Positions 12,115-36,875 of a DNA stretch of 64,000 nt are shown here, in pieces. Position 1 is the stretch's first letter; each line of letters begins with the position of its first letter. The stretch lies in assembly GCF_000786655.1 (NCBI RefSeq), contig NZ_JROM01000011.1, positions 124,001 through 188,000 of the forward strand, given 5' to 3'. The stretch is from Kocuria marina (GTDB taxonomy: Bacteria > Actinomycetota > Actinomycetes > Actinomycetales > Micrococcaceae). Position numbers and translations under genes: made by a program. The notes beneath the pieces were generated by a model. It was not told the origin of the DNA. It made no database searches and saw only the letters and a program-made list of their open reading frames with translations.

Positions 12115-12248
12115 TCCTCCGCCTCCGCGCGATGCCCGAGGGGCCGACCCCGGCCTGACTGCGCTGGACAACCGCATTGCCCACGCCCGCGGGTGGGCTG
12201 TGCCACGCCCGGCCCCGGTCGCGGCCTCCTGTGCTTAGACTGGGCCCA

Positions 12249-12364
12249 GTGACACGGGGTGCCGCTGCACGTTCCCACGACCCACCGGGCCGGGGACTCC
12301 GGATGCAATGGCTGAGATGACACCCGTCGAACCTGTCCAGTTAGTACTGGCGAAGGGATGTCAC
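12249..12364 (+). promoter_or_regulatory. TPP riboswitch (THI element)
   Basis: The conserved THI-box parts are all visible: ACACGGGGTGCC, then GGCTGAGATGACACCCG, GAACCTG and CTGGCGAAGGGATG. The P1 stem is formed by GTGACA (12249-12254) and TGTCAC (12359-12364). TAGACT at 12236-12241 is a plausible -10. About 55 bases separate P1 from the start codon at 12421 and no T-rich terminator is seen, so control is probably at translation initiation through the AGGAG site. High thiamine pyrophosphate should turn the downstream SDR-LLM pair off. Confidence 0.92.
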
Positions 12365-12420
12365 GGTGGCACCGCACGGGTGGCGCACCGCCTTCTTCGC
12401 CGTGAGCCACAGGAGTGAGC

Positions 12421-18097: not shown

Positions 18098-19012
18098 ATG
18101 CCCCTGATCAACGTGGGCAGCGCCTACCGCAGCATCACGGGCCCGCCCATGCGCTTCGCGCTGCGGATCTACGTGCCACAGCAGGATCTCGACGCCGCCT
18201 ACGCACCCGGCATCCCCCGCGCCCTGGACCCCTTCACCGCGGGCGTGCACGAACTCTCGGAGCAACTGGCCCGGCTGTCCGACACCTCACAACCATTGCT
18301 CCCGCCCGCACGTGAGCCGCTGTGGACCATGCCGTTCTCCACCGCGCCCGCCGGTTCACGGCGCCTGCCCGGACCCACCGGCGACTTCCCGGTCTTCCAC
18401 CCCACGCAGCGCTTGCGCCGCTCGCTGCGCCTGTTCACGGCCGCGGAGAACGAAGACAGCGCGCAGTTGTTGCCGCTGCTCGTTCCGGAGAAGCAGGTCA
18501 GCGACGCCGCCAAGGCCACGTCCCGCGAGACGTTCGACCCCGTGTACACCCGTGAGTCCGCGTACGTGGTCCCGCTCGCGTGGTTCGCGGCCTTCGCCCC
18601 GGAGGACCACGTGACCTCCTACCACTCCGGGCACGAGGTGCACCGGCTCATCGCCCCCGCGGACACCGCCGCACGCCGGGTGATCCAGGCCGCCCAGACC
18701 GTGGAGGACGCCGCCCAGCAAGCCTCAGGGGGCGCCGACGAGCACGACCTCCCGGACGAAGCCCGCCAAGCGGCCGCGTTCGCGCAGGACCTCACCCGCC
18801 TGGGACGGTGGCTGGGCACGTTCAGCGCCGCCTCCGTGGTGAGCCTGGACTACGGGTCCATCGCGGATCGGCTCCAGCCGGACGAGAGCCCCCGGGACAT
18901 GGCGGACGCCGTGGAACTGTTGCGCGAAGGGGATCTGGCGGCGGCTACCGCGGCGCTGCGCCGGATCTTCATGCGCTGGGCGCCGCTGGCCCACCTGCAG
19001 CAGGCGAACTGA
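18098..19012 (+). CDS. Conserved hypothetical protein cotranscribed with xthA
   Basis: I do not recognise this 304-residue protein. It has no signal peptide or membrane helix. Visible blocks are an N-terminal INVGSAYRSITGPPMRFALRIYVP and a central SAYVVPLAWFAAFAPEDH. A C-terminal helical region (about 200-300) is rich in Ala, Leu, Asp and Arg and ends RRIFMRWAPLAHLQ. It starts four bases after the xthA stop, so the two are surely one transcript. That context suggests, weakly, a link to DNA repair. Codon use is the same as the neighbours. Confidence 0.7.
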   Translation: MPLINVGSAYRSITGPPMRFALRIYVPQQDLDAAYAPGIPRALDPFTAGVHELSEQLARLSDTSQPLLPPAREPLWTMPFSTAPAGSRRLPGPTGDFPVFHPTQRLRRSLRLFTAAENEDSAQLLPLLVPEKQVSDAAKATSRETFDPVYTRESAYVVPLAWFAAFAPEDHVTSYHSGHEVHRLIAPADTAARRVIQAAQTVEDAAQQASGGADEHDLPDEARQAAAFAQDLTRLGRWLGTFSAASVVSLDYGSIADRLQPDESPRDMADAVELLREGDLAAATAALRRIFMRWAPLAHLQQAN

Positions 19013-19107
19013 GGCGGGGAGGGGAGGCGGCGTCGCCCGAGGTAGGTGGTGGCAGCGTCGTCGCCCGAGCTCCTGCCGCGACGCGCCCCCACCCACCCCA
19101 CCCCCGT

Positions 19108-19168
19108 GCTTTTACTCAGCTAAAGCAGAATTTCGGGCCCTGAGCTGCTTTTGCTCCACTAGAAATTC
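19108..19168 (+). repeat. Left 61-bp terminal inverted repeat of DUF559-type cassette A
   Basis: This 61-base block starts GCTTTTACTCAGCTAAAGC and ends CACTAGAAATTC. It matches the reverse complement of 20289-20349 at 58 of 61 positions. The outer C-rich flank is also mirrored on the right. Its A+T content is well above the window average. Inside the arm, GCTTT...AAAGC and GAGC...GCTC can form small hairpins. Confidence 0.9.
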
Positions 19169-19217
19169 ACTGCGCTGAGCCCTCAGCCCGCCGCGCTCGG
19201 AGCTCAACCCTTCGTGC

Positions 19218-20224
19218 TCAGCGCAATGCCCGCCGCACCCGCGTCAGCCATGCTTCCCGACGGGCTGGGGAGCGCAGATCGTCCCATGTGAGGACCGAGA
19301 CGTCCCACCCCGCATCCCGCAGCAGCCCCAAGCGATACATCTCGTCCCGGTACTGATCGATCTCCCGGGCGTGAACGGCGCCGTTGTACTCCAGAGCGAT
19401 CCGGGCCTCGGGCCACGCCAGGTCCAGGATGAAGGTCCGCCCGGCCACCGTGACCTGGACATTCAGCTGGGGTTCGGGGAGACCGGCGCGGTCGATGAGC
19501 AAACGGTCAGGGTCTCGGGCGCGGACCAGCACGGTGAACGTGCATCCCGCCATGCACGGCGCATTCGAGCGGTGCCGTGAGAAGTGGGAGGGAGCTGGTC
19601 CAAGCACTGTTCTACGTGATCCCGGGTGAAGCTCACGGGTGTCGTGCTCCCCGGAAGCACGAATTGCGTGGAGATCATTGCATCCAAACATGCGGTGATC
19701 CGCCACGGAGCGAGCAGTTTCGACAAACGGGCCAGGACTTCCACCGGATGAGCGATGCACCCACCCCACGGGCCCTCGAGACACGGCAGCCCCTGGGATT
19801 TGGCGATCCGGATACCCCGCTGCTGTGACTGGACCCGATGATGGGTCCACAGGAGCTCGGTGCGCTGCCGGGCCGCAGCAAGCTCATCCGCCCTGCCGCC
19901 GTTTCTGTTGCGCCCACTGCCCGACTTTCCCCCGGTGAGAACAGGCTGCACCCATGCTTCCGTGCCACCCACGGGCAAGCGGAACAGCTCCAAGGCGTGG
20001 ACGCCGCCCACCGCAAGTCCGGCATCGGGTCCGCCGATGTGCTTTTGCAGCAGCACGGACCTCTCGAGTCCGGACAGCGGCTCCTCCCGTACGACCCACA
20101 GCCCCCGGGCAAGTCGCTGGACCCCGGGGTTCTTCATCAACTGGGAAGCACGGGCTCCGGTGTCAGCGGTGACCAGCACGGTGGGTTCGGGTGGGAAGGG
20201 TACGGGACGTTGGCGGTACAACAT
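19218..20224 (-). pseudogene. DUF559/AbiEi-like protein gene A, broken by a one-base deletion
   Basis: From ATG 20224 the frame reads through QLPPTSHGTARMRRAW and CWSAPETLT, then is lost. The other frame carries the C-terminal domain: LLIDRAGLPEPQLNV, DLAWPEARIALEYNGAVH, LLRDAGWDVSVLTWDDL. The intact paralogue at 35336-36331 has TWSPRETLTRLLVMAHDLPAP at this point. Adding one base near 19505 (ACC-GT to ACC-CGT) restores an open frame of 335 residues, against 331 in the paralogue. The C-terminal part is a predicted PD-(D/E)XK nuclease fold; the N-terminal part (residues about 55-85) resembles AbiEi-type antitoxin proteins (AVGGVHALELFRLP). TAGAGT six bases upstream suggests a leaderless start. 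The gene fills the space between two 61-bp inverted repeats. Confidence 0.75.
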
Positions 20225-20288
20225 GCCCGGACTCTATGGCTCGATGCGGTGGAGCTGCCCGGGTTGTCCACAGCTCGGCCAGCCCATC

Positions 20289-20349
20289 GAATTTCTAGTG
20301 GAGTAAAAGCAGCTCAGCGGCCGAAATTCTGCTTTAGCTGAGTAAAAGC
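20289..20349 (-). repeat. Right 61-bp terminal inverted repeat of DUF559-type cassette A
   Basis: Reverse complement of 19108-19168 with three mismatches. It lies 65 bases upstream of the gene start and before the GH13 promoter. No convincing target-site duplication flanks the pair, because the outer G/C-rich sequences are themselves inverted copies. Confidence 0.9.
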
Positions 20350-20431
20350 GGGGGGTGGGGGCGTTCGGCGATGGTGGGCGGGGGGGGCGGCGGGTGCGAG
20401 GCCCCCGCGGGAGATGGGTAGCCTGGATCCC

Positions 20432-23163: not shown

Positions 23164-23165
23164 AG

Positions 23166-23238
23166 TGGCTCCGACCGGCGTCGATCCGGTGACCTTACGA
23201 TTTTCAGTCGTACGCTCTACCAACTGAGCTACAGAGCC
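23166..23238 (-). tRNA. tRNA-Phe (GAA)
   Basis: A cloverleaf is evident on the - strand: acceptor GGCTCTG with CGGAGCC, D-loop AGCTCAGTTGGTAGAGC, anticodon loop CTGAAAA and T-loop region CCGGATCGACGCCGG. The anticodon is GAA. The 3' CCA is not encoded. It is the last gene of a Glu-Asp-Phe cluster, an order common in actinobacteria. Confidence 0.95.
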
Positions 23239-23313
23239 AGGCACGTTCCCGGAGGCAACCTCCGGTGATATGCCGCGACGGCGCGAAAAGTTTCCTTTTC
23301 ATCGCCGCCTGAG

Positions 23314-23387
23314 CGACCCTGACGGGACTTGAACCCGCGACCTCCGCCGTGACAGGGCGGCGCGCTAACCAACTGCGCTACAGGGCC
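23314..23387 (-). tRNA. tRNA-Asp (GTC)
   Basis: On the - strand the acceptor GGCCCTG pairs with CAGGGTC, with one G-T pair. The D arm is GCGCAGTTGGTTAGCGC, the anticodon loop CTGTCAC gives anticodon GTC, and the T arm is GCGGGTTCAAGTCCCGT. CCA is not encoded. Confidence 0.95.
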
Positions 23388-23476
23388 TTGATTGTTTCCA
23401 ACGAGTGAATATCCTACCAGGACGAACGACTCACTGTGCAAATCGTTCACCCCGCGGTACCTCACACCGGAAACCG

Positions 23477-23549
23477 TACCCCCAACGGGATTCGAACCCG
23501 TGCCGCCGCCGTGAAAGGGCGGTGTCCTAGGCCGCTAGACGATGGGGGC
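23477..23549 (-). tRNA. tRNA-Glu (TTC)
   Basis: On the - strand it starts GCCCCCATCGTCTAG, has anticodon loop CTTTCAC (anticodon TTC), T arm ACGGGTTCGAATCCCGT and a G-T first acceptor pair, usual for tRNA-Glu. CCA is not encoded. It is the first of three tRNAs on this transcript. Confidence 0.95.
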
Positions 23550-34749: not shown

Positions 34750-35270
34750 TTAGGTGCTGGGGCCTCGCCGGGATGCTGCGGCGAACTTTGAGGCACTCCT
34801 ACGCCAGCCCGAACATTTGAGACGCCCCCGCGCCACCCGCAACATTTGAGGCACTCCCACGCCATTTCGCCCCCTCCCCCTGGCTTTGGAATGCCCAGGA
34901 GTTCCCCCATGGCGTCCGAGTGACTGAAATATCCGCGGTGAACTCTGAGGCACACCCACGCCATCCGCCAACGTCCAGGCTCTCCAAGGCCACCCGCAAA
35001 CTCTGAGGCACGCCAAAGCCACCTCCGCACCCTCCGCGTGGCCTCAGAGTGACTAAGAGTTCCACCGTGGCTTAGAAGTGACTGGATCATGCGCGACAAA
35101 CTTGGGGGCACTCCCACGCCATCCGCCAAATCTGAGGCATCTCCAAGCCGCCTCCGCCCTATGGGGGTGGCTTCCGAGTGACTGAATGTGCGCCTATGGC
35201 CTCAGAATGCCCAGAAGTTTCACCATGGCCTCCGGGTGCCTCGACAGTACGCGGCCGTGAGGTTGTCCGT
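34750..35270 (-). repeat. Left repeat array of DUF559 cassette B
   Basis: At least seven diverged copies of a motif close to CTTTGAGGCACTCCCACGCCA are spread over 520 bases, with variants such as CTCTGAGGCACACCCACGCC. They are mixed with GGCCTCAGAGTGACTAAGAGTTCC-like segments. Read in reverse complement the motif is TGGCGTGGGAGTGCCTCAAAG, the same as in the array downstream of the gene. So the two arrays are inverted with respect to each other. I see no gene in this stretch. Confidence 0.8.
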
Positions 35271-35335: not shown

Positions 35336-36331
35336 ATGCCGCAACCCCTCCGCATGCCAGACCTCGGACCCCGACCGGACGTTCGCACGAGTGACGGTTG
35401 GGGTAAACGTGCTCGAGCGCTGAACGGTGACCCCCGCATGCAGCGGGTGACTTTCAACCACTGGGTGCGATTTCCCGGCCAGAGCCCGGTGGCCATGACC
35501 TCGGCTCAGCGTGCGGCACTGATGCAGACCGTCCTCGATCGCCCGAGTTCCGCCGTGCGCGTGACCGGGTTGAGCGCCTTGTCGCTGTACGGGCTGCCCG
35601 TGGCGCCCCCGGATGCCACCTTCGACCGCGCTCTGGGGCACCGCCCCGCGGATCGAGCCCACGACTACGCGAAAATGCTCTCCACGGTTCATCTGTCATG
35701 GTCCGGACAGCGGATGAGGACGCCCGCCAGGGATGTATTCGTCAGCAAGTCATACGGCCTGGACCGGTTCCCCGGACCCTGGGGTGCGCGATTGGCCGAC
35801 CCCGTGGAGGCATTGGTCGTCGCCGCACCCTACTTGTCCAGGTGGCGCCTGACCGCTTGCCTGGACACTCTCGTCTCCCAGAACATTCGGCAGCAAGACG
35901 GAAACCATGTGTACCAGTACGACCGCGCTCTCATTCGACAGCGGCTGGGGCAGCTACCCCCGACATCCCCGCGGGTGCACCGGGTCACCACGGCTCTGGC
36001 GGACGTCGCGGAGAACACGTGGTCACCCCGGGAGACTCTCACCCGACTCCTGGTCATGGCCCATGACCTGCCGGCACCGGTCATGAACTTCCGGGTGGTG
36101 CTGGACGGCACGGACCGCTACCTGGATCTGGCGTGGCCACATGCCAAGGTCGCGGTGGAGTACAACGGCGCGGACCACACGGATCGGCGCCTGTACGGTG
36201 ATGAGCTGTTCCGCCGCCAGCGCCTCGAGGACAGTGGGTGGAAGATCCGGTTCCTGGTACTTGAGGACCTCCTGAACCCCGCCCGGCGGGCATTGTGGCT
36301 CGAATGGCTCGCCACAGAACTCACCCCTTGA
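35336..36331 (+). CDS. DUF559 PD-(D/E)XK-type protein with AbiEi-like N-terminal region, intact copy B
   Basis: The 331-residue protein has two parts. Residues about 1-115 resemble the N-terminal region of AbiEi-type (type IV antitoxin-like) proteins, with TGLSALSLYGLPVAP near 77-91. Residues about 230-325 are a DUF559/Vsr-like domain: YLDLAWP with Asp264, VAVEYNGADH with Glu275, then ELFRRQRLEDSGWKIRFLVLEDLL. Asp264 and Glu275 are the likely metal ligands of a restriction-endonuclease fold. Whether it cuts DNA, and whether it acts alone, is unknown. TACGCT lies six bases before the ATG, indicating a leaderless transcript, as in copy A. The gene stands alone between two inverted repeat arrays. 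Confidence 0.75.
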   Translation: MPQPLRMPDLGPRPDVRTSDGWGKRARALNGDPRMQRVTFNHWVRFPGQSPVAMTSAQRAALMQTVLDRPSSAVRVTGLSALSLYGLPVAPPDATFDRALGHRPADRAHDYAKMLSTVHLSWSGQRMRTPARDVFVSKSYGLDRFPGPWGARLADPVEALVVAAPYLSRWRLTACLDTLVSQNIRQQDGNHVYQYDRALIRQRLGQLPPTSPRVHRVTTALADVAENTWSPRETLTRLLVMAHDLPAPVMNFRVVLDGTDRYLDLAWPHAKVAVEYNGADHTDRRLYGDELFRRQRLEDSGWKIRFLVLEDLLNPARRALWLEWLATELTP

Positions 36332-36427: not shown

Positions 36428-36875
36428 GTGGCGCGGGAATGCCTTAAAGTCCGCCAGTGGCGCGGGGATGACTCAGAGTCTGCAGCCGAAATCCTGGTCA
36501 CTTCGAGGCCACGGCGGGATTCTCAGTCACCCCCAGGCCGCTCGGAGGTGGCAGAAGTGGCGTGGGAATGCCCTAAAGTTCGCCGGTGGCGCGGGAATGC
36601 CTCAAAGTCTGCGACGGAACTCCTGGTTACCTCGAGGCCGCGGCAGGATTCTCAGTCACCCCCAGGCCGCTCGGAGGTGGCAGAAGTGGCGTGGGAATGC
36701 CTCAAAGTTTGCGCCCGGCGTGGAGGTGCCTCAGAGTCTGCAGCGGAACTCCTGGTCACCTCAAGGCCATGGCAGGATTCTCAGTCACGCCCAGGCCATT
36801 CGGAGGTGGCAGAAGTGGCGCGGGGGTGCCTCAAAGTTCCCGGATGGAGCGGGAGTGCCCCAGAGTTCTCGCCCA
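36428..36875 (+). repeat. Right repeat array of cassette B: exact 129-bp tandem period
   Basis: Units begin GTGGCGYGGGAATGCC at 36428, 36557, 36686 and 36815, each exactly 129 bases apart; the last is partial. Each unit holds two sub-copies of GTGGCGTGGGAATGCCTCAAAG plus a block with GGAACTCCTGGTCACCTC and GGATTCTCAGTCACCC. Because 129 is a multiple of three, reading frames run through it and give repetitive 43-residue translations, but none has a credible start or family, so I treat it as non-coding. Confidence 0.85.

What the first reader, a model, noticed from the sequence alone, without database searches (positions are those of the whole stretch)
19108..20349. DUF559-type nuclease gene packed between 61-bp inverted repeats
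Seen: a single gene, transcribed alone, lies between 61-bp inverted repeats (58/61 matches). The repeats have no counterpart elsewhere in the window and a clearly lower G+C than surroundings. Known: DUF559 domains have a Vsr-like PD-(D/E)XK fold, and REP-associated transposase (RAYT) genes are single genes flanked by inverted repeats. Inference: this may be a non-canonical mobile or self-maintaining cassette in which a nuclease-fold protein acts on its own flanking palindromes.
Basis: partly seen in the sequence, partly recalled or inferred. Interest (0 to 1): 0.8.

Follow-up and report, generated by a model that had tools for sequence, protein, structure and literature searches.

The report
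Nuclease gene paired with dispersed palindromes
A little-studied family of bacterial nuclease-like genes is mostly bracketed, gene by gene, by its own pair of roughly 60-base palindromes, copies of which are also scattered around the same genomes, which looks like a mobile-DNA partnership built around an enzyme unrelated to the one known for such repeats.

Summary
The arms are real (58/61 over 61 bp). The gene between them is frameshifted here; five relatives carry it intact at the same locus. The arms belong to a dispersed repeat. The larger finding is general: Kocuria genomes carry several genes of this family (AbiEi-like N-terminus, Vsr/EDxHD-fold C-terminus), and most lie between their own matched pair of repeats, usually palindromes of about 60 bp (32 of 40 genes, all 13 loci; control genes 4 of 30). 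In one genome 27 further copies were read, 25 within 40 nt of a gene's stop codon; the 28 aligned elements are exactly 65 nt long with compensatory stem changes. No Y1/RAYT transposase was found in 7 of 7 genomes. Two orthologous cassettes are inverted between relatives, one of them also strongly diverged; four species at one locus carry four different palindromes, each matched left and right. 9 of 15 testable homologs outside the genus share the layout. Best reading: a REP/RAYT-like partnership in which an HTH-nuclease recognises, and probably helps spread or exchange, its own palindromes. Binding, cleavage and transposition are inferred; no precise insertion was seen. My searches of the held literature found no description.

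The parts
19096..19177 (+). left arm (core 19108-19168), member of a dispersed ~60-bp imperfect palindrome family
20280..20361 (-). right arm (core 20289-20349), inverted relative to the left arm, 58/61 over the core
19218..20224 (-). nuclease-family gene (AbiEi-like N-terminus plus Vsr/EDxHD-fold C-terminus by its relatives), broken by a frameshift near 19507; open in five relatives at the same locus
20264..20273 (+). DnaA-box-like motif TTGTCCACAG, 47 nt upstream of the start; within one mismatch upstream of 26 of 40 family genes
   Evidence: DnaA-box identity recalled
35336..36331 (+). second, intact family member; its AlphaFold model (35336-36328) was used for the fold searches
34783..35158 (.). 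repeat array upstream of the second member (CTCTGAGGCA-type units), inverted counterpart of the downstream array
36679..36868 (.). repeat array downstream of the second member

Best explanation
This is one decayed member of a family of stationary 'nuclease plus cognate palindrome' units that work like REP/RAYT units with an unrelated enzyme. The protein, about 330 residues, has an AbiEi-antitoxin-like N-terminal region that I infer reads the palindrome, and a Vsr/EDxHD-homing-endonuclease-fold domain with conserved acidic and histidine residues that I infer nicks or cuts it. Each gene keeps a matched pair of its own palindromes at its ends. Copies of the palindrome spread through intergenic DNA as non-autonomous elements, and pairs of palindromes act as places where the DNA between them can be inverted, replaced or lost. 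A DnaA-box-like motif upstream of most Kocuria members suggests expression tied to replication. Shown here: gene-specific matched arms, dispersal, fixed length and compensatory changes in one family, fold, no Y1 transposase found in seven genomes, inversion and divergence of cassettes. Inferred: binding, cleavage, the copying mechanism and DnaA control.
For: Matched flanking repeats in 32 of 40 family genes against 4 of 30 control genes; the 40 fall into 13 loci, each with at least one passing gene; 9 of 15 testable homologs outside the genus pass too. A gene's own flank beats those of all same-genome paralogs in 30 of 33. One locus in four species has best translated flank segments 91-99% identical but four different palindromes: about 0.75-0.94 alike within a genome, 0.44-0.66 between genomes. 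Dispersed copies: focal genome, G007 27 copies read, G018/G002/G011 8, 9 and 7, G023 about 10, and G180 outside the genus 14 further places. In G007 28 of 28 elements matched by a core pattern (26 dispersed plus the gene's own two) are exactly 65 nt where 62-78 was allowed; outside the pattern's own bases 513 of 560 stem cells are Watson-Crick, with both-side changes at several positions; 25 of 27 copies lie within 40 nt of a called stop codon. No PF01797 in 7 of 7 genomes; the control search rings in 5 of 14. Fold: I-Bth0305I Z 12.2, Vsr Z 9.9, AbiEi Z 8.4. One cassette inverted and only 70% identical between close relatives whose flanks are 95-96% identical; a second inversion in another pair.
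Against: No precise insertion or excision of a palindrome was found; the two clean presence/absence sites in the G000/G012 pair are larger indels (the focal cassette; 173 bp), and another indel of about 197 bp in the same stretch holds no recognised palindrome. The orthologous palindromes compared in G018/G002/G011 are shared at most sites. Copies of the G007 palindrome also occur in G017 (6) and G001 (7), whose gene at the same locus has other palindromes, so copies persist without a cognate gene there. The focal arms are only weak hairpins (scores 7.0 and 8.4, at control level), and 2 of 15 focal copies lie within 40 nt of a stop. Copy number is low for some members (2 in G006), and the window's second member has two weak matches outside its own arrays. 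8 of 40 genes fail the flank test. Four of nine genes at the focal locus are broken. The G012 copy at the exchanged locus is itself incomplete, so decay may add to its divergence. No binding or cleavage data.
Confidence: 0.52

Rival explanations
1. Homing-type cassette. The nuclease cuts cassette-free or differing alleles at its locus, and repair copies the whole cassette in; the palindromes are mainly recombination handles and the dispersed copies are by-products.
For: The C-terminal domain is closest to the homing endonuclease I-Bth0305I. At one site the cassette differs by 30% and in orientation while the flanks are 95-96% identical. Loci recur across species.
Against: No intron or intein was noticed around the genes, though none was sought. 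It does not explain 26 dispersed elements of exactly 65 nt with conserved stems near gene ends.
Confidence: 0.2
2. Autoregulator. An AbiEi-like DNA-binding protein represses itself through an operator palindrome; the downstream copy is a terminator and the dispersed copies are a regulon.
For: The N-terminal region resembles AbiEi (Z 8.4); a palindrome lies upstream of many of the genes; 4 of 15 focal copies lie between divergent genes.
Against: In G007 the copies lie at gene 3' ends and 1 of 27 is between divergent genes; the two neighbours of the focal gene show no Pfam toxin; conserved nuclease residues are left unexplained.
Confidence: 0.12
3. Ordinary bidirectional terminators or host-selected stem-loops that happen to bracket the gene.
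For: Strong hairpins, 13 of 27 between convergent genes; many sites are shared between species.
Against: Terminators are not expected upstream of the gene with a gene-matched sequence; exact 65-nt length and family sequence; pair-wise turnover at one locus.
Confidence: 0.1
4. A conventional insertion sequence whose terminal inverted repeats are the arms.
For: One gene between inverted repeats; absence in the near relative.
Against: Pairs can be direct as well as inverted; genes stay at the same locus across species; the absence is not a clean excision; single arms are dispersed without the gene.
Confidence: 0.05

Closest known systems
REP/REPIN elements with RAYT (Y1 HUH tyrosine transposase), 'REPtrons'
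   Same: Gene flanked by palindromes; dispersed extragenic copies; a repeat class per gene; more than one gene in some genomes; compensatory stem changes (PMC3116915, passages read; PMC3733652, passages read)
   Different: The enzyme is an AbiEi-like plus Vsr-fold protein, not HUH; no Y1 gene found in 7 of 7 Kocuria genomes; elements of about 50-70 bp; 2 to about 30 copies found, against the usual >100 per genome stated in the abstract of PMC2817692 (listing)
TIRYT/TIRtron (Y1 transposases flanked by longer inverted repeats, PMC3733652, passages read)
   Same: Single gene between inverted repeats that also form moderate dispersed families
   Different: Again a Y1 HUH enzyme
EDxHD homing endonuclease I-Bth0305I and Vsr endonuclease
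   Same: Fold of the C-terminal domain
   Different: Fused to an AbiEi-like region and bracketed by palindromes
AbiEi antitoxin (type IV AbiE system)
   Same: Fold of residues 11-225 at moderate quality (Z 8.4, rmsd 6.1)
   Different: Fused to a nuclease-fold domain; no Pfam-recognised toxin in the two neighbours of the focal gene
DUF559 / MTES_1575 Pfam families
   Same: Weak sequence match and the same fold class
   Different: All five intact relatives scanned score under the curated cut-offs

Membership tests
RAYT/REPtron | Y1 HUH tyrosine transposase | tested here: not met
   PF01797 not found in 7 of 7 genomes, control rings in 5 of 14; the C-terminal domain matches I-Bth0305I and Vsr
RAYT/REPtron | gene flanked by palindromes of its own class | tested here: met
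   32 of 40 family genes against 4 of 30 controls; 30 of 33 beat same-genome paralogs; strong palindromes on both sides in 11 of 40 against 0 of 30
RAYT/REPtron | palindromes dispersed in extragenic DNA | tested here: met
   G007 27 copies read; other genomes; one of 15 focal copies falls inside a called ORF
RAYT/REPtron | compensatory changes in the stem | tested here: met
   one family only (G007)
RAYT/REPtron | GTAG or CGTC tag at the foot of the palindrome | not tested
   no systematic test made
EDxHD homing endonuclease | fold of the catalytic domain | tested here: met
   Z 12.2, rmsd 2.8, 96 of 97 residues
EDxHD homing endonuclease | E-D-x-H-D catalytic residues | tested here: inconclusive
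   E233, D264, H281, E290 invariant in 19 sequences; residue mapping onto I-Bth0305I not made, motif details recalled
EDxHD homing endonuclease | spread of its own gene by homing | tested here: inconclusive
   cassette exchange at one site is compatible, not proof
AbiE type IV toxin-antitoxin | AbiEi-like antitoxin fold | tested here: inconclusive
   6y8q_A Z 8.4, rmsd 6.1
AbiE type IV toxin-antitoxin | adjacent AbiEii toxin gene | tested here: inconclusive
   neighbours are a 304-aa protein without a Pfam match and a GH13 enzyme; other loci were not examined for it
DUF559 (PF04480) / MTES_1575 (PF18741) | score above the curated cut-off | tested here: not met
Insertion sequence | precise empty site | tested here: not met
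   G012 junction lies outside both arms; one site only; target duplications not sought systematically

The most novel reading that the evidence does not exclude
A new class of palindromic mobile element: an HTH plus Vsr/EDxHD-fold nuclease, with replication-linked expression, recognises its own about 60-bp palindrome and spreads it as non-autonomous copies, co-evolving with it locus by locus, so that REP-type elements arose independently of HUH transposases in actinobacteria; palindrome pairs also serve as inversion and cassette-exchange sites.
Probability: 0.42. Interest if true: 0.92.

Novelty: new variant of a known kind. Interest (0 to 1): 0.82.

Why it matters
The enzymes tied to REP elements in the papers I saw are HUH transposases (one of them notes a REP superfamily with no known enzyme). 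A second, unrelated enzyme class with the same genomic signature would show that 'stationary nuclease plus dispersed palindromes' is a convergent strategy. It would suggest a function for unexplained nuclease-fold genes of actinobacteria, and offers natural pairs of enzyme and palindrome, several per genome, for testing how specificity co-evolves.

Tried and rejected
RNA-structure reading of the focal arms: folding of the four arm strands is no better than shuffles (z -0.55 to 0.29), and Rfam at gathering scores finds only three tRNAs and a TPP riboswitch in the window. PADLOC gives only a weak ZorE hit at E 0.04 to one of two relatives scanned. NCBIfam gives nothing for the two halves of the gene. 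Promoter or regulon reading: not favoured by copy positions in G007. A first, stricter gene caller left many neighbours unresolved and was replaced by the codon-usage caller. Palindromic extension of the immediate flanks of the G007 copies is slight (3.89 against 3.27 of 8 matches, 12 of 2000 permutations) and I draw nothing from it. Single-palindrome gain between G018, G002 and G011 was looked for and not found. The G006 cassette as query found nothing in G012 at E 0.01, although G000-type arms do occur there. Absences from the fold lists are not used as evidence.

Sampling and controls: the 40 genes are the stronger matches and include orthologs, so they are not independent (13 loci). Weaker matches, short fragments and some contig-edge copies (for example L058, L059, G018:C20) were left out; L058, L059 and L072 were tested only, where all three passed (16.5 against 13.5; 22.0 against 13.0; 30.0 against 14.5). 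The 30 control genes come from the window alone, not from the other genomes. The eight failures are L056, L057, L082, L087, L089, L099, L033 and L104; L057 was cut into by the ORF extent used and scored 21.0 against 18.0, and L056 has its left arm displaced by about 4 kb. Of 28 non-Kocuria loci, 13 were not tested because the frame was not resolved. Searches scored 40 of 54 and 40 of 315 candidates, so copy numbers are lower bounds. In one search the search pattern fixed the outer seven bases of each side. The hairpins compared were delimited by hand.

Full report
What is there. The two arms exist as described: 61 bp, 58 matches, G+C about 0.45 in a 0.70 window, no other match in the window at E 0.01, and far above shuffles (60.5 against 16.5 at most of 200). 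Between them lies one gene on the minus strand, 20224-19218, broken by a one-base deletion near 19507.

The locus in relatives. The gene sits at this locus in 9 genomes (G000, G005, G006, G010, G011, G015, G022, G023, G025) and is open in 5 of them (G005, G006, G010, G022, G023); G000, G011 and G025 have split frames and G015 one in-frame stop. In G012, G002 and G018 the two neighbouring genes are adjacent and the gene and arms are absent. In G012, the nearest relative met (99% in the neighbouring protein), the junction is outside both arms at a G-rich microhomology, so this looks like a deletion rather than excision. Arms related to the focal ones flank the gene in inverted pairs in G005, G006 and G015 (67.5, 21.0 and 22.0 against shuffle maxima of 17.0, 18.0 and 13.0) and in G022, where the left arm lies about 4 kb away beside the neighbouring gene (no shuffles run on that pair). 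In G010 the right side is cut by the contig end, G025 shows arms by eye but fails the flank test (13.5 against 16.5), and G011 and G023 carry a different repeat pair, in direct orientation (20.5 against 14.0 and 27.5 against 15.5). In G000, G005 and G022 the left arm resembles its own right arm more than any other species' right arm; in the other five of eight genomes compared it does not.

The family. A search with the intact K. tytonis protein gives matches at E 1e-6 in 25 of 27 genus genomes, 1-7 matches each, fragments and weak matches included. Twenty-six are aligned. The AlphaFold model of the window's second, intact member (pLDDT 91.4, pTM 0.90) has a C-terminal domain matching the EDxHD homing endonuclease I-Bth0305I (Z 12.2, 96 of 97 residues) and Vsr (Z 9.9), and an N-terminal part resembling the AbiEi antitoxin (Z 8.4, rmsd 6.1). 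Plain Foldseek gave no PDB match at E 0.001 or better; in the viral library 5 matches reach 0.001, among them phage DUF559 proteins and a phage homing endonuclease. Invariant residues across 19 sequences include E233, D264, E275, N277, H281, E290 and R293.

Most genes have their own palindromes. For 40 family genes the best inverted or direct repeat between the 450-bp flanks exceeds all 100 shuffles in 32; for 30 other genes of the window, in 4. Medians are 21.0 and 12.0, maxima 73.5 and 19. The 40 belong to 13 loci, and each locus has at least one passing gene. Many of the repeats are hairpins of about 50-70 nt: both flanks carry a palindrome scoring 14 or more in 11 of 40 family genes and 0 of 30 controls. 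The focal arms are among the weak ones (7.0 and 8.4). A gene's upstream flank matches its own downstream flank better than that of any same-genome paralog in 30 of 33 cases, and best of all 35 in 22; in the other 13 the best match is the ortholog at the same locus in another species. At one locus shared by G024, G001, G007 and G017 the best translated flank segments are 91-99% identical, yet the four genomes carry four different palindromes, about 0.75-0.94 alike within a genome and 0.44-0.66 between. In a sample of 198 genomes of the order, 24 besides the window's own have a homolog at E 1e-25, and 9 of 15 testable loci have the matched flanks.

The palindromes are dispersed. Focal family: 6 near-full-length copies plus partial ones in the own genome and 5 in the G012 stretches read. 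G007: 27 copies besides the gene's own pair were fetched. A core-pattern search of those stretches gave 26 of them plus the gene's two, all exactly 65 nt where 62-78 was allowed; 708 of 756 stem cells are Watson-Crick, or 513 of 560 without the positions fixed by the pattern, and several positions are changed on both sides. 25 of the 27 lie within 40 nt of a called stop codon, some overlapping a called gene end, 13 are between convergent genes and 1 between divergent genes; in the stretches read, convergent gaps make up 1,492 of 10,055 intergenic bases. The older focal copies do not show this bias (2 of 15 near a stop; 3 convergent, 4 divergent, 6 tandem, 1 inside an ORF, 1 at a contig end). 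Copies of the G007 palindrome also occur in G017 (6) and G001 (7) but not G024, although the gene at that locus in G017 and G001 now has other palindromes: they may be relics of an earlier allele. In G018, G002, G011 and G023 another family has 8, 9, 7 and about 10 copies, and in G180, of another genus, 14 places beyond the gene's own include doublets 101-178 bp apart. Not every member is productive: G006 has 2 copies, and the window's second member has two weak matches outside its own arrays and gene family. No Y1 transposase was found in 7 of 7 Kocuria genomes while the control search rings in 5 of 14 known genomes.

Movement. (a) At the G000 C14 locus the near relative G012 has collinear flanks (91-96%) but the gene inverted, and 70% identical where flanks are 95-96%; for G010/G022 gene and flanks are equally diverged (86% and 86-87%). 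The two genes still group together on the tree (support 0.96) and the G012 copy is incomplete, so either a related allele replaced one, or the gene has diverged unusually fast. (b) Between G004 and G007 the gene is inverted between its palindromes with collinear flanks. (c) A site with one palindrome in G011 carries two palindromes bracketing about 2 kb (TetR regulator and luciferase-like gene) in G018 and G002. (d) One palindrome in G012 is missing in G000 as part of a 173-bp indel, and one G007 palindrome has no counterpart at the orthologous site in G001, in diverged intergenic DNA, while three other sites compared (two in G001, one in G017) are shared. Against this, an indel of about 197 bp in the same G000/G012 stretch involves no recognised palindrome. 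None of these is a precise single insertion, and homologous recombination between repeats could explain (b) and (c).

Promoter motif. CTGTGGA[TC]AA, the reverse complement of a DnaA box as I recall it, lies with at most one mismatch within 110 nt upstream in 26 of 40 Kocuria family genes, mostly 44-49 nt from the start, and in 0 of 30 controls; with a looser 8-base pattern over 250 nt the counts are 21 of 40 and 1 of 30. A limited look at 15 non-Kocuria homologs (500 nt before the profile match, start codons not fixed) gave two matches at unclear positions, so it is not a defining feature.

Interpretation. The layout reproduces main features of REP/RAYT units (PMC3116915 and PMC3733652, passages read) except for the enzyme. 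I therefore say it works like a REPtron and is not a RAYT. The nuclease's action on the palindrome is the untested step. Homing of the cassette is the strongest rival.

Literature. Searches for DUF559 with REP and palindromic, with inverted repeats, with AbiEi/MTES_1575/Vsr-like, DUF559 alone (14 papers), RAYT/REPIN, REP with actinobacteria, Kocuria with palindromic repeats, very short patch repair with REP, and EDxHD showed, in their listings of titles and abstract starts, no paper that joins these nucleases to palindromes; several listings were cut to the best 10-15. The recent REP survey PMC12306157 has no word beginning with 'RAYT', 'nuclease' or 'Kocuria' (term search only). The library holds open-licence papers, so this is not proof of novelty.

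Noticed in passing
window 35336-36331 with arrays at about 34783-35158 and 36679-36868: Second, intact family member bracketed by arrays of CTCTGAGGCA-type units rather than a single hairpin; no match to it in the near relative G012.
   Followed up: partly
window 20264 and upstream of 26 of 40 Kocuria family genes: DnaA-box-like motif at a nearly fixed distance from the start codon in most; suggests replication-linked expression.
   Followed up: partly
L264 977-3190 (G018:C33) against L277 (G011:C7): Two palindromes bracket a TetR plus luciferase-like gene pair where the relative has one palindrome only; palindrome pairs may bound exchangeable cargo.
   Followed up: partly
L070 (G004) against L096 (G007): Orthologous nuclease gene inverted between its palindromes with collinear flanks.
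   Followed up: yes
L263/L268/L274 (G018, G002, G011): A Fic-domain gene region with palindromes at its borders; a neighbouring gene in G018 and G002 is missing there in G011, where a palindrome sits at the break.
   Followed up: partly
L108/L117 (G001) and L116 (G017): Copies of the G007 palindrome at orthologous sites in genomes whose cognate locus now has another palindrome; possible relics of an earlier allele.
   Followed up: partly
L180 (non-Kocuria genome G144): Family homolog flanked by an inverted repeat pair of about 130 bp (score 65.5 against a shuffle maximum of 14.5), longer than usual.
   Followed up: no
window 12245-12375 (+) and 23165-23549 (-): TPP riboswitch and a tRNA-Phe/Asp/Glu cluster; ordinary.
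   Followed up: no
window 18098-19012: Conserved neighbouring protein of 304 aa with no Pfam match.
   Followed up: no
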